This document shows, piece by piece, positions 7,573 to 14,738 of a DNA stretch of 25,571 nt (the stretch's first letter is position 1; every line of letters begins with the position of its first letter). The notes beneath the pieces are model-generated. The model did not search any database. It was not told the DNA's origin and worked only from the letters and a program-made list of their open reading frames with translations. The stretch is from a virus, in IMG/VR virus record IMGVR_UViG_3300017969_000125, positions 1 to 25,571 of that record. One strand, 5' to 3'. Made by a program: the position numbers and the translations under genes.

Positions 7573-7805
7573 TCAAACTGGAGGTCAGCGAGTTCTTCGT
7601 CTGTCATTCCAGTAATATCATCCATAAACATGATCTCATCATCCCAACATTCATCGAGATCATCATCACCAATTAGGAACATTTCTTGTGCGATTGCTCT
7701 AGCATCCGCATATTTATCATTGTCCAATAGATCATTCAATCGTTTGGAGATCACCGTGTCGATGACATCCAGGCAACGTGCGCGAGACAGTTCGAGTTCA
7801 TCCAT
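7557..7805 (-). CDS. Acidic helical phage protein, 82 aa
   Basis: Unassigned. The first half is helical and mixed charge (ELSRARCLDVIDTVISKRLN then LLDNDKYADARAIAQEMF); the second half is very acidic (IGDDDLDECWDDEIMFMDD) and ends TDEELADLQFDVTVE. No membrane segment. The negative stretch may bind a basic partner, for instance the lysine-rich protein at 8221-8634 encoded by the same operon, but this is speculation. ATG 7805 overlaps the upstream stop by one base (TGATG). Last gene of the 10011-7557 unit. Confidence 0.7.
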   Translation of the reverse strand: MDELELSRARCLDVIDTVISKRLNDLLDNDKYADARAIAQEMFLIGDDDLDECWDDEIMFMDDITGMTDEELADLQFDVTVE

Positions 7806-7990
7806 CAGAGAGTTTCCTTAAGTGAGTGGTAAATTACGTCGCAGATTGCCAACTGATCTTGTATTGCGTCGGCATCTGGTTTGATTCGAGTATGTTGAAG
7901 GACAGCAAGTTTAACCTCTGCCTGTATCAAAGTGCGGAGGAGATCAAGAGTCTCCTCCTTGAGTAAAACAGTCTTGAAGTCAATACTCAC
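7805..7990 (-). CDS. Small helical protein, 61 aa (GTG start)
   Basis: Unassigned, all-helical 61-residue protein: SIDFKTVLLKEETLDLLRTL, then IQAEVKLAVLQHTRIKPDAD and AICDVIYHSLKETL. Heptad-like leucines suggest a helical hairpin or coiled coil. It starts with GTG at 7990, which shares GTGA with the stop of the upstream gene; there is no alternative ATG near the N-terminus. The stop overlaps the next ATG as TGATG. Fifth gene in the helicase operon. Confidence 0.7.
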   Translation of the reverse strand: MSIDFKTVLLKEETLDLLRTLIQAEVKLAVLQHTRIKPDADAIQDQLAICDVIYHSLKETL

Positions 7991-8199
7991 TTCTCAACTT
8001 TCCAATCAGAGTTACCTTTTTCTGGCACCCAGAAGAAGTAACCACCATTGAGAGACTTGAGGAAAACATGATTCATTCCCTCATGCATCTTCTCACACTC
8101 AACAAAACAAGTATGGAAGAGATCCATCTCATTTGCAAAGCGATTCTTTGCCTTGCGGGAGAGCGGAGTGACAAAGAGTTTCTTAGTTTTAGTGGTCAT
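7987..8199 (-). CDS. Small basic phage protein, 70 aa
   Basis: Unassigned. The N-terminus is basic (MTTKTKKLFVTPLSRKAKNR), followed by a Cys/His-containing stretch (MDLFHTCFVECEKMHEGMNH) and a beta-like C-terminus (GGYFFWVPEKGNSDWKVEK). Such endings resemble small domains that cap a beta sheet, but no family is recognised. ATG 8199 has an AGAGAGGA site close upstream. The 21-base gap to the lysine-rich gene upstream is otherwise featureless. Confidence 0.7.
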   Translation of the reverse strand: MTTKTKKLFVTPLSRKAKNRFANEMDLFHTCFVECEKMHEGMNHVFLKSLNGGYFFWVPEKGNSDWKVEK

Positions 8200-8220
8200 G
8201 TTCCTCTCTTGATTACCTTG

Positions 8221-8634
8221 TTATTGTAATGCATCCAGCAACGGATTCCCAGTGGACTGTGCCACTTTGTTGGACTGTCCACTAGATTTTTTCTTGGGTT
8301 TCGTGGTTCCCTTGGTGGCACTGGGTTTCTTGGTCTGAGATCCCTTTGCCTTACTAGGCGTTTTCGCTTTTTTCTGTGATTTCTGTGCGGCGGGGGTAGT
8401 AGGTCGTTTCTTGCGGGGAGATTTCCCTTTTTTGTATTTTTCTACTTTACTCATGGCACTTTGGAATGTGCGTGATACATCACTCAGCACTTTCCCCTCG
8501 TGGATGATAACCCACTCCTTGTTACCAATAACAGGAATCACCGCCCACATGCCATCTGGTGAGACATAATCTCTCACACAAACTGGATCTAATAAACTTG
8601 AGTTACAGTTGTAATACTTTTGCTCTCTACCCAT
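8221..8634 (-). CDS. Protein with histone H1-like lysine-rich tail, 137 aa
   Basis: Two-part protein. Residues 1-65 form a small mixed domain (MGREQKYYNCNSSLLDPVCV, then MWAVIPVIGNKEWVIIHEG with alternating hydrophobic residues, and a helix SRTFQSAMSKVEKYKKG). Residues 66-125 are a low-complexity tail of Lys, Pro, Ser, Ala and Thr (KKAKTPSKAKGSQTKKPSAT, TKPKKKSSG), like eukaryotic or bacterial H1-type tails. It ends with a hydrophobic tip NPLLDALQ. The tail most likely binds DNA or RNA without sequence preference; a role in condensing host DNA or phage DNA would fit, and so would an RNA-binding role. It overlaps 8627-8830 by eight bases. Not assigned to a named family. Confidence 0.75.
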   Translation of the reverse strand: MGREQKYYNCNSSLLDPVCVRDYVSPDGMWAVIPVIGNKEWVIIHEGKVLSDVSRTFQSAMSKVEKYKKGKSPRKKRPTTPAAQKSQKKAKTPSKAKGSQTKKPSATKGTTKPKKKSSGQSNKVAQSTGNPLLDALQ

Positions 8635-8830
8635 ACGTCCTCATAAACTCATCTAACGTGAAAATGTCATCGGTCGATGTCTCTTCTACCAACTCATCAT
8701 AGGATAGTTGCTGCAGCATATCTAGATGTTCTTCCATCGTTAAATCTTCATCAGGATCGAAATCATCGTGGCATAACCACTCATACTCCCGTTGAAGTGC
8801 ATCAATTAGTTGTTCTTTGGTGTAATTCAT
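8627..8830 (-). CDS. Acidic small protein, 67 aa
   Basis: Unassigned. Strongly acidic and helical: KEQLIDALQREYEWLCHDDF, then DPDEDLTMEEHLDMLQQL and YDELVEETSTDDIFTLDEF. No catalytic motif. Its stop overlaps the start of the lysine-rich protein and its start shares ATGA with the helicase stop, so it is made between an ATPase and a basic nucleic-acid-binding protein. It may be a partner of one of them; the sequence alone does not show which. Confidence 0.7.
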   Translation of the reverse strand: MNYTKEQLIDALQREYEWLCHDDFDPDEDLTMEEHLDMLQQLSYDELVEETSTDDIFTLDEFMRTYG

Positions 8831-10011
8831 CGTTTGATCTCTGAAATTGCAGGTTGACCTTGATTGAAGATGGTGTCTACAACTGCCTGCACTTTGCGGG
8901 CAGTGCTGATACCAACGTTGTCATAAGTTGGGATGGTGACTAGACCGTAAGTCTTAGATTCATCACCGAGACGAATCACCCGACCCACAGTTTGAGAGAT
9001 ACCAACATAATCCATATTACGAAGGAAAATAACAGATTGAAGACCATTAACATTGATGCCCTCCGACAGAATAGAGTGGTGAAGAACAATAAACTTCTTG
9101 GTGGAATCTTTACCCCAAGCATTCAGAGTTTCAAAGAACTTTTCGCGATTGACTTTGTGACCGTCAATGATAGCACCAGTCTTGGAAGTAATCACCATCC
9201 AAGAATAACCCTCTGCAGCAATCTTAGTGACAAAGTTAGTATTTTGGATCACATTGATGATCTGTTTGGTAGTGCGGGCACAGACAAGAACTTGGTTTTT
9301 GTTGTCATCAATGATCGTTTGATGCAGGTAGTCCGCATCACGTTGCCAGTTGTTCTTGTCCTTGGAAAGTGGAAGTTGACGGACATTAACTTTAGGAGGC
9401 AGAATATAACCACCCTCCACCAGTTCGGGTGCAGGAACCTGACAGATTACCTGACCATAAACATCAACGTCATTCATCCCTGGTTTCTTCACAGTCAAAG
9501 AATGTTTGGGAGTTGCAGTAAAGAAATAGCAACGATCTGCCTCATTGGAGAAGAACTCGGTAGGAGGAAAGAAGTTGCGAGTAATGCTGTTGTGTGCCTC
9601 ATCAAAATAGATCGTGTTGACCTCAATATCTGCATCCATTACACGGTGCAGAGAATGATAGGTAGTGAAGATCAGAACGTTCTCACCTGCGGTACGGGCA
9701 GTGTTAGCGAACAGGTGAATCTTCTCGGGGTTAGTAGAAGAGAAGTGATGAGTTTCACCACTGTGAACGTGCATCACATGAGTATATTTGGTGTCAATAA
9801 CTTCCAGAAACTCCTGACAGAGTTGTTCAGCAAGAAGGATACGAGGTGCTACAACAACTGTGGTGGTTCCTTTCTGAATAAGATCGTAAGTGGTCTGGGT
9901 ATCAACAATCATCGTCAATGTTTTACCGCCGCCAGTAGGAACAATGATCTGTCCTTTATGATAAGCAAACATACGATCAAGAATCTTTTCCTGATGAGGA
10001 CGGAGTTGCAT
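8827..10011 (-). CDS. Superfamily 2 DEAH-type helicase, 394 aa
   Basis: A nucleic-acid-dependent ATPase. Visible SF2 motifs: Q-like N-terminus MQLRPHQEKI, Walker A/motif I PTGGGKT (25-31), motif Ia APRILLAEQ (55-63), motif II DEAH (137-140), motif III FTATP (164-168), the second RecA domain with VLVCARTTKQ (241-250), motif V SEGINV (316-321) and motif VI QTVGRVIRLG (340-349) with the arginine fingers. The layout matches UvsW/RecG/type I restriction-like helicases; T4 UvsW (about 500 residues) has an extra N-terminal domain absent here. Likely role: branch migration, restart or R-loop removal during phage replication. I chose ATG 10011; a TTG at 10044 sits in the terminator T-run. Its stop shares ATGA with the next gene. 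Confidence 0.9.
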   Translation of the reverse strand: MQLRPHQEKILDRMFAYHKGQIIVPTGGGKTLTMIVDTQTTYDLIQKGTTTVVVAPRILLAEQLCQEFLEVIDTKYTHVMHVHSGETHHFSSTNPEKIHLFANTARTAGENVLIFTTYHSLHRVMDADIEVNTIYFDEAHNSITRNFFPPTEFFSNEADRCYFFTATPKHSLTVKKPGMNDVDVYGQVICQVPAPELVEGGYILPPKVNVRQLPLSKDKNNWQRDADYLHQTIIDDNKNQVLVCARTTKQIINVIQNTNFVTKIAAEGYSWMVITSKTGAIIDGHKVNREKFFETLNAWGKDSTKKFIVLHHSILSEGINVNGLQSVIFLRNMDYVGISQTVGRVIRLGDESKTYGLVTIPTYDNVGISTARKVQAVVDTIFNQGQPAISEIKR

Positions 10012-11833: not shown

Positions 11834-11857
11834 AAAAAAAGGGAGGTTGAACCTCCC
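11834..11857 (-). terminator. Terminator of the DUF262-HNH gene
   Basis: The minus strand has GGGAGGTT-C-AACCTCCC, a perfect palindrome at 11841-11857, then TTTTTTT (11834-11840) that runs into ATG 11833. It lies downstream of the late-type promoter at 11861-11868, so that promoter would start transcription inside the hairpin. Confidence 0.85.
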
Positions 11858-11860
11858 TCG

Positions 11861-11869: not shown

Positions 11870-13207
11870 TCACTGGATGGGGTTACGTCCCAGAGACAGA
11901 TTATCTCCCGCTTCCTGTACAGCACAGTTGGCATCATCGGTAGAACCGCCATCAGCGTGGGGTTCAATGTGTCCACCGTGGTATGCGGTAGGGTCAAAGA
12001 GTCGTCCCTTGTCGATGGTCTTACCTTCGGGAGTTACCCAGTTCTGCCTCACTGCAGCACTGAACTTCTGTTCCTTGCTGAAGTTACGCTTGGGGTCCAG
12101 TTGAGTGCAGAACTCTTCAGGATTCCAGGTCTTCGTAACAATCTCACGACGGAGTTTGTTGAAGGAAGACTCACGCGAACGCATGAGTTCCTTATACACT
12201 GCCTCACGACCGTTGTTGTAAGTGTAGGTAGTGGGGTCAGTTAGGTTCATTGCGTGGGTCTTCATGTAACCTTCGATGAAACCATCTCGGTTACTGATGC
12301 TGAAGTTGTTGTCCTTCAGATCCTTCACCAGTGCAAACAAGTCAAGAACACAGTTCTTGTTAGGCAGTGCCTTCAGATCATCACCCATGAAGTTGATGAA
12401 GGACTTGAAGTCCGACTCGAACTTGTGAATGAGTTTGTCCTCAGTGGACCCGTATGCATAAGCACTCCACAGGGACTTGTCGGAGATGGTGGTATTCAGA
12501 CCACCGAAGTACACCAGTGCGAGACCAGCAATGAAGTCGTCAACCTTGCGACGGTTGATGTCTGCCTTGGAGAAGAAGTTCTTCAGTACAGACTCATACT
12601 CGGTGGCAAGATTGCGGATGGTGTTAGAGAAGTCGGAGATGACTGCGTTACGCTTCTCTGGACCATTCAGAGAGATACCGTCATTCATACGAATGAACAG
12701 TTCAGAAAGTTGATCACGAGTCGCAGAAGTAATGATCTCGATGGTAACAACTGCGTTCGAGAATGCCTGCATGATCACATTAGGCAGAGTCTCGAACATG
12801 TCGTTCTCCCCCTCAATGATCTCCACAACTTGACCAGCAATGTCATAGAATCCAGGTTGGATTCCAAACTCTCCGCGAATAAACTCCGCGAGAGTAGTGA
12901 CACGGTTGTTGGAGTCGATGTTGAGGTAATCAACAGCGCGACCTTTCCATCCCTGATAATACTGTTTGTCTGCGGCAACCTTAGAAGTAACCTGGCAGGC
13001 ATCTGTAGATGCCAGGATAAACTTAGAGGGTGCCATTCCCAGGATCACCGAAGTGATGTAGGAACGTTTGTTGTCGTTTGCCCAGCGAACTCGGGACTGG
13101 AAAGAATAGTCCGCACGGGTCTTGGGTTGCATCTCGGCGAGGAAAGACTCCACCGAATACTTGTAAAAGTCCGATTGAATAGGACCGAATGTTGCTTTGT
13201 TTGACAT
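11870..13207 (-). CDS. DUF262 + HNH nuclease-like protein, 445 aa
   Basis: Two-domain protein of the GmrSD/DUF262 type. The N-terminal part has the DUF262 (ParB/sulfiredoxin-like NTPase) pattern: SFQSRVRWANDNKRSYITSV, ILGMAPSKFILAS, then IDSNNRVTTLAEFI (97-110) in the place of the D-G-x-Q-R motif, and LSELFIRMNDGISLNGPEKR (168-186). The C-terminus is an HNH nuclease core: YHGGHIEPHADGGSTDDANC (H413, H417, N427) followed by GDNLSLGRN (N436). In bacteria such proteins cut modified or foreign DNA; in a phage it could act on host or rival phage DNA, or as superinfection exclusion. The D-S-N-N-R form lacks the usual Gly and Gln, so NTPase activity is uncertain. Codons look more GC-rich than in neighbours. 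Operator-like repeats precede the start. Confidence 0.85.
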   Translation of the reverse strand: MSNKATFGPIQSDFYKYSVESFLAEMQPKTRADYSFQSRVRWANDNKRSYITSVILGMAPSKFILASTDACQVTSKVAADKQYYQGWKGRAVDYLNIDSNNRVTTLAEFIRGEFGIQPGFYDIAGQVVEIIEGENDMFETLPNVIMQAFSNAVVTIEIITSATRDQLSELFIRMNDGISLNGPEKRNAVISDFSNTIRNLATEYESVLKNFFSKADINRRKVDDFIAGLALVYFGGLNTTISDKSLWSAYAYGSTEDKLIHKFESDFKSFINFMGDDLKALPNKNCVLDLFALVKDLKDNNFSISNRDGFIEGYMKTHAMNLTDPTTYTYNNGREAVYKELMRSRESSFNKLRREIVTKTWNPEEFCTQLDPKRNFSKEQKFSAAVRQNWVTPEGKTIDKGRLFDPTAYHGGHIEPHADGGSTDDANCAVQEAGDNLSLGRNPIQ

Positions 13208-13247
13208 CGTGTTTAGTGTCGTACTACAATGTGTCGGTTTTGAGCAA
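13208..13247 (-). promoter_or_regulatory. Probable promoter of the DUF262-HNH gene
   Basis: Minus strand, downstream of the repeats: TTGCTC as a possible -35 and TACGAC about 18 bases later as a poor -10, then CACTAAACACG and the ATG. No strong ribosome site is visible. The weak core promoter next to repeated sites suggests activator or repressor control. Confidence 0.35.
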
Positions 13248-13294
13248 CGGAGTGTGCCGTAGCAACGGATATTTGTTGCCGCGGAGTGTGCCGT
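13248..13294. repeat. Two 13-bp direct repeats upstream of the DUF262-HNH gene
   Basis: CGGAGTGTGCCGT occurs at 13248-13260 and 13282-13294, start-to-start distance 34 bases (about three helical turns). Between them lie AGCAACGG (also at 13243-13250 and 13261-13268) and a small inverted repeat GCAAC (13262-13266) / GTTGC (13275-13279). The block sits 41-87 bases before ATG 13207, in the place of a promoter, and looks like a multi-site operator. Confidence 0.6.
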
Positions 13295-13327
13295 CGGTCA
13301 TCCACCAACACAAGTAGAATAACAGAG

Positions 13328-13498
13328 TCAGGATCCCTTGGCAACCCCTGTCTGCATTTCCTCCAAAACACTGATGGCACCTTGCAATCGGAGAAATTCT
13401 TCTTTCTTCTCGTTAAAATCTTTCTCCATTTGGAGCAACTCATCTCTCAATTTGAGTGCCTTGTCTACTAATTCTTTGTACTTTGTTTCTGTGTTCAT
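13328..13498 (-). CDS. Small coiled-coil protein, 56 aa
   Basis: Read directly: 56 residues beginning MNTETKYKELVDKALKLRDE and continuing LLQMEKDFNEKKEEFLRLQG. It is a single long helix with heptad spacing of Leu and Val, ending SVLEEMQTGVAKGS. Probably a homo-oligomeric coiled coil. The late-type promoter at 13520-13527 lies 22 bases upstream, so it is likely a late protein, possibly a chaperone or scaffold for fibre assembly, though nothing specific shows this. It is transcribed divergently from the glycine-rich gene. ATG 13498 has a weak ribosome site. Confidence 0.75.
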   Translation of the reverse strand: MNTETKYKELVDKALKLRDELLQMEKDFNEKKEEFLRLQGAISVLEEMQTGVAKGS

Positions 13499-13559: not shown

Positions 13560-14738
13560 ATGTCAGAGTTAAATCAATCAATCTTGAGACAACTCGCAAC
13601 ATCTGCAAAGGATGACATTGTTGCAGTTCCAGAAGAGAATCAGAAGATTGTTTCTGTGACAAATGCTGATAATGGATCGGAAATGGTAGCATCAGATGTG
13701 CCTGGTGAAAGTGTAATGTCAGGTGTTATCGGAAACGGTCAGATCTCAAAGGCAACTGATAATTACTTTGCCAGTGGTTCGATCTACATGAGTCAGTTAA
13801 ACTCTACATTTGGTGGTGGAAATTACTTATCCTCCAAATATAGAGGTGGTAATGTTCCGAACTGTCAATATAACAATAATGTTCCCACTGGTGGACAGAT
13901 TTATTTCAGTAATTTCCGTGGGTCAACTAAAACAATCTATGCATATTGCAATGGAAACTTTGTACATCTCCAGGCAAGATGGGAGATTTATGGAGACACT
14001 GACTGGACTTCTCAGGCAAACAAAAAAATCATCTTTAGTGGTCATGCTGGATCCTATGACACTAATCCTGCACTGAGAATTAACAATAGTGGAGACTTGA
14101 ATGGTGCTCAAGTTGAACTTGTAGGTACAGGTACTCCTAGAATTGTTGGTCGTCCAGGAAATAATGGCGGTGGTGCTGGTAACAGTGGTCTACATATCGC
14201 AAGTGCTATCAAGATTCCCGATAGTATGTGGAATGGTCAATGGGCATCTGTAGGAATCTTTGGTGCTGGAGGTGGCGGAGGAAATGGCGGTAACGGTGGC
14301 AATGGTGGCAACGGTCAACACAGCGGTAGCGTCAGATGTAACGGTTGGTTCTGTAATGGAACAAAGAGAGAATGTAATGGTGATGGTGGTAACGGAGGAA
14401 ATGGTGGTAATGGTGGATCAGGTGGCAGAGGTAGGGGTTACGAATGGAACGGAAGTGTCTGGAATTTAGTATGGCCAGGTGCCTCTGGTGGTAATGGCGG
14501 AAACGGTGGAAATGGCAGAGCAGGAAATGGCGGAAACGGTGGAAATGGCGGCGGTGGAGGTGATCTCCAGAGTTATGGTTCTGGCGGTGGCGGTGGCAAC
14601 AGCGGCAATAGCGGAGGTTATGGTCAGCAAGGTTGCGGCGGTGGTCCTAACGGAGGAAACAGTGGTAATGGAGGCAACGGCGGAGGTCCAGGCGGCGGCA
14701 AAGCAAACTACTCCCACAATGGGTATCGTTATCAGTAA
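13560..14738 (+). CDS. Glycine-rich fibre-tip adhesin-like protein, 392 aa
   Basis: The only plus-strand gene. Residues 1-130 look like a phage structural head: GQISKATDNYFASGSIYMSQ, then PTGGQIYFSNFRGSTKTIYA (109-128), a G-x-I-x-F-S-x-F-x-G motif common in tail-fibre and structural proteins. Residues 130-235 are mostly beta strands. From about 235 the chain is Gly/Asn-rich (GGNGGNGGNGG runs at 240-252, 276-288, 309-331) interrupted by more complex loops with Cys and Trp (RCNGWFCNGTKREC 259-272; YEWNGSVWNLVWPG 294-307). This matches the plan of S16-type gp38 adhesins: polyglycine-II helices in a sandwich, with variable loops that touch the receptor. Likely role: host recognition at the tip of long fibres. 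GGN codons repeat in the DNA. Homology to gp38 is inferred from composition. Confidence 0.75.
   Translation: MSELNQSILRQLATSAKDDIVAVPEENQKIVSVTNADNGSEMVASDVPGESVMSGVIGNGQISKATDNYFASGSIYMSQLNSTFGGGNYLSSKYRGGNVPNCQYNNNVPTGGQIYFSNFRGSTKTIYAYCNGNFVHLQARWEIYGDTDWTSQANKKIIFSGHAGSYDTNPALRINNSGDLNGAQVELVGTGTPRIVGRPGNNGGGAGNSGLHIASAIKIPDSMWNGQWASVGIFGAGGGGGNGGNGGNGGNGQHSGSVRCNGWFCNGTKRECNGDGGNGGNGGNGGSGGRGRGYEWNGSVWNLVWPGASGGNGGNGGNGRAGNGGNGGNGGGGGDLQSYGSGGGGGNSGNSGGYGQQGCGGGPNGGNSGNGGNGGGPGGGKANYSHNGYRYQ
14240..14700 (+). repeat. GGN-codon tandem-like repeats in adhesin gene
   Basis: Imperfect repeats of GGTGGTAATGGC / GGCGGAAACGGT type (Gly-Gly-Asn-Gly units) make up much of this part. The high self-similarity offers many sites for slippage or recombination, which could change repeat number or swap loops. 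Confidence 0.7.

What the first reader, a model, noticed from the sequence alone, without database searches (positions are those of the whole stretch)
11870..13294. DUF262-HNH protein encoded by a phage, with tandem operator-like repeats
The gene resembles bacterial GmrSD-type modification-dependent nucleases, proteins that usually defend bacteria against phages. It is placed between late modules, has apparently different base composition, and has two 13-bp repeats CGGAGTGTGCCGT 34 bases apart plus AGCAACGG repeats upstream. It may be a phage weapon against rival phages or host DNA. The atypical D-S-N-N-R in place of D-G-x-Q-R suggests a changed or lost NTPase step.
Basis: partly seen in the sequence, partly recalled or inferred. 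Interest (0 to 1): 0.75.

Follow-up and report, generated by a model that had tools for sequence, protein, structure and literature searches.

The report
Swappable DNA-cutting gene in ocean phages
A virus of marine cyanobacteria carries a gene resembling the bacterial enzymes that cut up modified viral DNA; related phages hold it at one fixed genome spot where it can be swapped as a single unit, which suggests a weapon between phages but has not been tested in the laboratory.

Summary
The gene is real: 445 aa, minus strand 11870-13207, on a T4-like cyanophage fragment. The sequence match to GmrSD_N is below Pfam's cut-off, but a confident model (pLDDT 89.7) gives a BrxU/SspE/ParB-like N-domain and a C-terminal HNH closest to Cas9's HNH. 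The 13-bp pair is real (0 of 2000 shuffles) but is not a conserved operator array: it comes from a 34-nt insertion, absent from a 99%-identical relative, in the loop of a leader hairpin. That hairpin is conserved and covaries. D-S-N-N-R is no lesion: IDSNNR is in 29 of 29 clade-A proteins covering it, IDGGNR in 17 of 17 of clade B. In cyanophages the gene has a sigma70-like promoter, purifying selection, and one slot (fibre-2OG-adhesin-[gene]-helicase) where the two clades, about 23% identical, replace each other as a single-gene cassette. No 4-6-mer is missing from carriers specifically, although the same test shows 0 of 290 CTAG in a phage with an MjaI-type enzyme; no DNA methyltransferase of three families was found. 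Most likely an SspE/GmrSD-like, condition-gated DNA nuclease used in phage-phage or phage-host conflict. Activity and target are unproven.

The parts
11870..13207 (-). DUF262-HNH fusion protein, 445 aa (clade A)
   Evidence: dN/dS 0.015-0.34 over nine pairs of family members
12671..13171 (-). N-terminal ParB/Srx-like (DUF262) domain, residues 13-179
   Evidence: VIA-align: BrxU 7p9m_B Z 8.5 (268 residues, rmsd 10.1, spans residues 14-362), SspE 6jiv_A Z 7.0 (141 residues, rmsd 4.3), ParB-N 5k5a Z 6.9
12902..12916 (-). D98-S-N-N101-R102, at the place of GmrS/SspE DGQQR
   Evidence: IDSNNR in 29 of 29 clade-A proteins that cover it, IDGGNR in 17 of 17 clade B; DGQQR from PMC4619093 and PMC13251355 (passages)
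12080..12670 (-). helical middle region, residues 180-376
   Evidence: secondary structure of the model
11873..12079 (-). C-terminal HNH (beta-beta-alpha) domain, residues 377-445; H413, N427, N436; G412 where GmrD has D/E
   Evidence: 7mpz Cas9 HNH Z 9.1, rmsd 1.4 over 69 residues; family profile against PDB E 5.2e-6; GH-N-N in 29 of 29, DH-N-N in 16 of 16 that cover it
13316..13344 (-). sigma70-like promoter TTGCCA-17-TATTCT
   Evidence: the same place holds TTGCCA-17/18 and a similar second hexamer in L009, L012-L017
13242..13310 (-). leader element TGTTGRTGGATGAC-[covarying stem]-loop-[stem]-CTC; in the window the stem CGACGG/CCGTTG is 13291-13296 with 13245-13250
   Evidence: once per carrier contig
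13251..13284 (-).
   Evidence: absent from L001/L008 (99% identical protein) and from L002/L003; the leader folds to -36.3 kcal/mol, z -3.4
11839..11859 (-). intrinsic terminator-like hairpin directly after the gene
   Evidence: 9-pair stem and T-run; similar element at L009 9345-9362

Best explanation
The gene is a self-contained, exchangeable cargo cassette (own promoter, leader hairpin, coding sequence, terminator) of T4-like marine phages. It encodes a single-chain DNA nuclease that works like SspE/GmrSD: an N-terminal ParB-like domain senses a feature of target DNA with nucleotide bound at the D-[SG]-[NG]-N-R pocket, and licenses a C-terminal HNH domain to nick or cut. The phage is not cut because the trigger (most simply a base or backbone modification of rival phage or host DNA) is absent from its own DNA. 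The leader hairpin most likely limits or times production of this dangerous protein. SHOWN: domain folds by prediction, invariant motifs, purifying selection, promoter-like site, leader covariation, one occupied slot, cassette exchange between clades, no carrier-specific word avoidance, no methyltransferase of three families. INFERRED: cutting activity, modification as the trigger, rival phage or host DNA as the target, regulation by the hairpin.
For: Fold. Motifs. Purifying selection. Slot: of 14 loci found with the neighbouring 361-aa protein, 13 reach far enough and all 13 hold the gene. Exchange: L019 matches S-SSM7 DNA up to 7641 and again from 9350 with no match across the gene (L046: up to 7727), while L019 and L018 share only 7740-9332 (80%); the tree puts L018 and L019 in clade A, 100/100. 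Other positions: near DNA polymerase, DruA-like, RtcB and tail-chaperone genes. Leader. Self-protection logic: no PF01555, PF00145 or PF02086 in S-SSM7, Sf-FS3, S-SM2 or G001; no 4-6-mer specific to carriers, while the positive case S-SM2 shows CTAG 0/290.
Against: No activity data. No database names a target. Clade A has Gly where GmrD has the D/E before the catalytic His, so the HNH could be weak, a nickase, or no nuclease. Foldseek's best PDB match is only E 0.017. Word avoidance cannot exclude long or asymmetric sites. Free-standing endonucleases also sit between core genes. The leader could be a DNA operator. Other methyltransferase families were not searched.
Confidence: 0.5

Rival explanations
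1. Free-standing homing-type endonuclease: it cuts gene-minus genomes near its own locus and spreads by gene conversion; the clade swap at the slot is a homing trace.
For: HNH domain; single-gene exchange with sharp edges; positions near DNA polymerase and other core genes; homing enzymes can act as weapons (PMC12908238, passages).
Against: A DUF262-like part of some 360 residues is not a known homing architecture (recalled). Old fixed slot kept in both clades with promoter-like sites. The swap exchanges one DUF262-HNH for another; no empty/filled pair of the slot was found.
Confidence: 0.2
2. Host takeover nuclease: made early to degrade host DNA carrying a host modification, feeding nucleotide salvage; rivals are incidental.
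For: Sigma70-like promoter next to the gene; codon bias towards that of highly expressed genes in one relative.
Against: 4 of 50,697 phage records carry a relative and 8 of 8 non-carrier reference cyanophages used as controls do without, so the job is dispensable; clade exchange fits conflict better.
Confidence: 0.15
3. Sequence-specific restriction enzyme whose phage has purged the site from its genome.
For: The same slot region in S-SM2 holds an MjaI-type enzyme (PF09568, 158.9 bits) with 0 CTAG in 190,789 bp.
Against: No 4-6-mer is specifically missing in carriers: CCGG is absent from several non-carriers and normal in carriers G003 (89/86) and G004 (42/53).
Confidence: 0.07
4. Non-catalytic or regulatory protein: a ParB-like DNA binder with a dead HNH, for example an anti-restriction decoy or transcription factor.
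For: G412 in place of D/E before H413 in all clade-A proteins with that region.
Against: H413, N427 and N436 are invariant with the 14/9 spacing of H54, N68, N77 of the G. metallireducens enzyme (PMC4619093, passages); clade B keeps DH-N-N.
Confidence: 0.08

Closest known systems
SspE (DUF262 + HNH effector of the Ssp phosphorothioate system)
   Same: ParB-like N-domain with a nucleotide pocket fused to a C-terminal HNH; N-domain match Z 7.0 over 141 residues
   Different: no phosphorothioate genes recognised near it in the window; D-S-N-N-R instead of DGQQR; Cas9-type HNH; phage-borne; 445 aa against 771 residues in the 7drs_A entry
GmrSD / BrxU (type IV, glucosylated or other modified cytosine)
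   Same: order DUF262 then HNH in one chain; BrxU is the top Foldseek hit and Z 8.5
   Different: below Pfam's GmrSD_N cut-off; no PF07510-type C-domain matched; DGQQR not kept
Virus-encoded DUF262 proteins in BFVD (mimivirus relatives, Cronobacter phage GAP32, Caulobacter phage CcrPW, Tenacibaculum phage pT24)
   Same: DUF262-like fold in viruses
   Different: those matches are partial or 11-18% identical; no leader or slot comparison made
S-SSM7 SSSM7_035 'HNH endonuclease' and Sf-FS3 SfFS3_32
   Same: same slot, same domain order
   Different: clade B: IDGGNR, DHI, about 23% identical; no leader hairpin of this kind found
Weaponised homing endonuclease of phage PhiPA3
   Same: a phage endonuclease giving an edge over a co-infecting phage (PMC12908238, passages)
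   Different: intron-borne, site-specific, no DUF262 (the last recalled)

Membership tests
GmrSD type IV restriction enzymes | N-domain reaches Pfam GmrSD_N cut-off (33.2 bits) | tested here: not met
   18.9 bits, E 0.0018; 7 of 22 family members match at E <= 0.1, best 0.0018
GmrSD type IV restriction enzymes | (I/V)DGQQR motif | tested here: not met
   IDSNNR in 29 of 29, IDGGNR in 17 of 17; motif from PMC4619093 (passages)
GmrSD type IV restriction enzymes | C-terminal DUF1524/PF07510 with E/D-H-N-N | tested here: not met
   PF07510 not among the 14 families matched by any of 22 members at E <= 0.1; H-N-N present, E/D replaced by G in clade A
GmrSD type IV restriction enzymes | cleavage of glucosylated hydroxymethylcytosine DNA with NTP | not testable with these tools
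   needs enzyme assays
DUF262/ParB-Srx fold nucleases (wide sense) | ParB/Srx-like N-domain fold | tested here: met
   BrxU, SspE and ParB-N rows, Z 6.2-8.5
HNH (His-Me finger) nucleases | beta-beta-alpha fold with H, N, N | tested here: met
   Cas9 HNH Z 9.1, rmsd 1.4 over 69 residues; H413, N427, N436
SspE | phosphorothioate-modification partner genes sspABCD nearby | tested here: inconclusive
   none among the neighbours scanned, but the phage genome is incomplete and the host unknown
Type II restriction enzyme with self-avoidance | recognition word missing from carrier genomes | tested here: not met
   34 sets, words of 4-6 nt; longer or gapped sites not covered
Restriction-modification pair | DNA methyltransferase in the same genome | tested here: not met
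   0 of 4 records for PF01555, PF00145, PF02086; control genomes ring; other families not searched
Free-standing homing endonuclease | empty and filled alleles of the site, spread into empty ones | tested here: inconclusive
   13 of 13 informative slots filled; no empty allele found, other positions exist
Phage moron | own promoter and terminator, exchange as one unit | tested here: met
   promoter and terminator are consensus matches only

The most novel reading that the evidence does not exclude
A virus-specific DUF262/Cas9-type-HNH family forms a standing exclusion locus of marine T4-like phages: one slot, interchangeable nuclease alleles of about 23% identity with different trigger specificities, some under an RNA-controlled promoter, so that co-infecting phages are excluded according to which allele they carry; in more distant relatives it is coupled to a DruA-like protein as a two-gene phage-borne defence module.
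Probability: 0.25. Interest if true: 0.8.

Novelty: new variant of a known kind. Interest (0 to 1): 0.55.

Why it matters
If it cuts DNA, lytic ocean phages would carry the same kind of modification-gated nuclease that bacteria use against phages, as an exchangeable cassette, and the allele at one slot would predict which phages can share a cell. It would also give a testable leader that controls a phage nuclease, and a family (two clades, 40 distinct proteins) with no relative found in a one-pattern scan of 84,980 bacterial and archaeal species genomes.

Tried and rejected
Tandem operator: rejected, one copy in the 99% relative. Degenerate NTPase motif: rejected as a lesion, invariant in the clade.

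My own lead that CCGG is the target: S-SSM7, G001 and the window have no CCGG. Rejected after full controls: non-carriers SCSM1, S-SSM5, S-RIM50 and S-RIM8 also have 0, and carriers G003 and G004 have normal numbers. RGCY avoidance as a mark of this enzyme: rejected, the RGCY-poor zone is also in non-carriers.

Recent foreign capture from composition: weakened; not excluded, since G-ending codons are high too. In S-SSM7 the clade-B gene is unremarkable (GC3 0.400, 9th in a list of 50 genes that I picked).

The upstream 56-aa ORF as an immunity partner: unlikely, the 76% relative L013/L014 has no match to it. Rfam: no match at gathering thresholds. PDB by sequence with the single protein: none. 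Bacterial relatives: 18 stretches matched the one pattern used, 0 confirmed. NsnA, the PADLOC hit (E 2.9e-7): a paper search gave nothing relevant in the 15 listed of 91, so it stays unexplained.

No paper on this family's function was seen in the listings of searches (open-access library only). Two searches on cyanophage RGCY or CTAG avoidance listed nothing on it.

Full report
WHAT IS THERE. The window is a 25,571-base virus record whose nearest named relatives are T4-like Synechococcus phages (51 of 50,697 phage records match, 44 named Synechococcus). The ORF at 11870-13207 (-) is 445 aa. By sequence it is a weak DUF262 protein: Pfam GmrSD_N E 0.0018, below the curated cut-off; PADLOC NsnA E 2.9e-7; two PHROGs of unknown function. 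Four phage records hold a relative by tblastn, at 23-26% identity.

FOLD. AlphaFold2 with 22 family sequences gave mean pLDDT 89.7, pTM 0.79. Foldseek's best PDB hit is BrxU (E 0.017; no hit at 0.001). VIA-align gives Cas9 HNH 7mpz Z 9.1, rmsd 1.4 over 69 residues for 377-445; BrxU Z 8.3-8.5 over 268-274 residues (rmsd about 10, so domain by domain); SspE 6jiv Z 7.0 over 141 residues; ParB-like rows Z 6.2-6.9 for about 13-180. Z under 8 can reflect a common arrangement, as the tool warns. Viral structures: 23 of 321 BFVD matches have E <= 0.001, many named GmrSD or DUF262 proteins of giant viruses and phages, so virus-borne DUF262 proteins are not new as such.

FAMILY. A profile scan of 2.9 million viral contigs gave 44 loci; L065 and L066 were added. 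With the window this makes 47 proteins in two clades (A 30, of which 25 distinct; B 17, of which 15 distinct). Several contigs are near copies. The tree separates A and B at 100/100 (36 rows; L020, L035, L036, L051 and exact repeats left out). Clade A has IDSNNR in 29 of 30 (L035 starts after it) and GH-N-N in 29 of 30 (L036 ends before it); clade B has IDGGNR in 17 of 17 and DH-N-N in 16 of 17 (L051 ends before it). D98, N101, R102, H413, N427 and N436 are invariant in the 22-sequence alignment. The spacing H-14-N-9-N equals H54, N68, N77 of the G. metallireducens HNH enzyme, residues reported as critical (PMC4619093, passages seen). dN/dS for nine pairs is 0.015-0.343: purifying selection.

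SLOT AND EXCHANGE. In the window, S-SSM7 and Sf-FS3 the order is S74 fibre, 2OG, 2OG, a protein of about 310-360 aa, a reverse-strand protein (glycine-rich in the window), a small ORF, the DUF262-HNH gene, then 2OG and others, then helicase. Using the 361-aa neighbour as query, 14 loci were found; 13 reach past the slot and all 13 hold the gene (A in 4, B in 9), L209 ends before it. In L019 the flanks match S-SSM7 DNA (65-82%), but no match covers 7642-9349, where S-SSM7 has a clade-B and L019 a clade-A gene; L019 and L018 share only 7740-9332, at 80%. L018's downstream flank is only 123 bases, so its other side was not tested. Clade-A genes also sit elsewhere: after a tail-chaperone gene (L018), near gp43 (L021, L023, L030) and near gp23 (L026), and next but one to an RtcB gene (L033). 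A DruA-like gene (PF14236, E 1.4e-11 in L026) lies upstream, 37 to 560 bases away, in 9 of the 15 distant loci tabulated (L021-L034 and L036; L035 left out because its contig starts inside the gene); L023, L027, L028, L033, L034 and L036 show none.

THE REPEATS AND THE LEADER. The two 13-mers are real, but L001/L008, 99% identical in protein, has a single copy with one substitution, and L002/L003 none. Every clade-A relative of 65% or more that I examined (L008, L009, L012-L017) has TTGCCA with a second hexamer 17 or 18 bases on, followed by TGTTGRTGGATGAC, a 5-6-bp stem, a loop of 4-7, the other arm and CTC. On six distinct rows the 7 pairs are standard in 42 of 42 cells, 3 pairs change on both sides, and the covariation score is 0.438 against a shuffled mean of 0.182 (0 of 500 as high); slid versions score at most 0.086. 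Six related rows are few, and I chose the structure from these sequences. The 12-mer core occurs in 21 of 86 loci held at that time, once each; all are carrier contigs except L070, where it lies in another context. A scan for a 15-mer version gave 101 stretches, of which 80 were returned: a hairpin followed by CTC was found in 7, six with a compact loop, all six on carrier contigs, and one (L088) with a 44-nt loop, taken as chance. L018, L019 and clade B have promoter-like sites but not this element. In the window the 34-nt insertion lies in the loop and the outer stem is kept in the predicted fold. I read this as an RNA leader; a DNA operator is not excluded.

COMPOSITION. GC 0.490 and GC3 0.583 are the highest of 21 ORFs in the window. 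The gene ranks first to third in GC3 in the cyanophage loci (L008-L020, L037-L050, L065, L066), in both clades. In G001 it ranks 3rd of 94 for GC3 and 5th of 94 for C-ending codons, in company with gp23 and gp18. In S-SSM7 it is ordinary. High expression or old host-like bias explains this as well as recent capture.

DOES THE PHAGE AVOID A SITE? If this were a sequence-specific enzyme without a methyltransferase, carriers should lack its word. Over 34 sets (25 carriers, S-SM2, 8 non-carriers) no word of 4-6 nt stood out as missing from carriers only; pooled tests used 7 of 14 clade-A and 5 of 11 clade-B sets, and some carriers are near copies of each other. The weakest exceptions are AGTACT in pooled clade A (23 for 88 expected) and TTCGAA in pooled clade B (0 for 93, but 50 for 181 in non-carriers and 0 for 24 in S-SM2), neither shared by both clades' lists. 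The method works: S-SM2, whose slot region holds an MjaI-type enzyme (PF09568, 158.9 bits; CTAG specificity recalled, not confirmed in the passages), has 0 CTAG for 290 expected, alone among 34. PF01555, PF00145 and PF02086 are absent from S-SSM7, Sf-FS3, S-SM2 and G001. So self-protection by methylation of these kinds, or by purging a short site, is not seen for DUF262-HNH carriers. A gate on target modification, as in GmrSD, BrxU and SspE, is the simplest remaining idea. It is an inference.

WHAT IS KNOWN. GmrSD, BrxU, SspE, Menshen, Dazbog and PD-T4-2 are bacterial DUF262 systems (PMC10952713, passages). SspE couples sensing, GTP hydrolysis through the motif arginine, and HNH activation (PMC13251355, abstract and passages). 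A survey of jumbo phages does not contain the term DUF262 (PMC7824862, find). Homing endonucleases as phage weapons are reviewed in PMC12908238 (passages). I saw no paper on this phage family's function in the listings of searches.

VERDICT. A conserved, exchangeable, probably nuclease-encoding cargo gene of marine T4-like phages; a new variant of the DUF262-HNH kind, not a member of GmrSD by its defining features. The weapon idea stands as the best guess, untested.

Noticed in passing
window 1-25571; G001 101520-122799; S-SSM7 36845-51054; S-ShM2 34632-53987: Several T4-like cyanophages have one 12-21 kb stretch with no RGCY (AGCT, AGCC/GGCT, GGCC), where elsewhere one occurs every 300-800 bases; the window lies in such a zone (2 RGCY in 25.6 kb against 107 expected). 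It is independent of the DUF262 gene (also S-RIM8, Syn9, S-RIM50) and absent in S-8S55, S-SM2 and SynMITS9220M01. Idea: DNA that enters the host first and meets its restriction enzymes.
   Followed up: partly
L068 17530-18057 (S-SM2 SSM2_066) and L188-L197: Cyanophage S-SM2 encodes an MjaI-type restriction enzyme, has no CTAG in 190,789 bp (290 expected) and no methyltransferase of three families: self-protection by site loss.
   Followed up: partly
L307-L315 (S-ShM2): 0 TTAA in 179,563 bp for 586 expected; the only one of 34 sets with TTAA among its depleted words; may point to a TTAA-cutting enzyme in phage or host.
   Followed up: no
L026 6724-7854, L030 6418-7560, L074 2240-3382: DruA-like genes (PF14236) in T4-like marine phages, annotated 'putative cytoplasmic protein' in S-SSM7; just upstream of DUF262-HNH in 9 of 15 distant loci.
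   Followed up: partly
window 13560-14738 (+): Reverse-oriented glycine-rich protein (GNGGNGG repeats) downstream of the fibre/2OG genes; resembles T-even gp38-type adhesins (recalled, no family match).
   Followed up: no
L033 6015-7151: Phage-borne RtcB RNA ligase (PF01139, E 6.7e-126) near a clade-A DUF262-HNH gene, with a 108-aa ORF between them.
   Followed up: no
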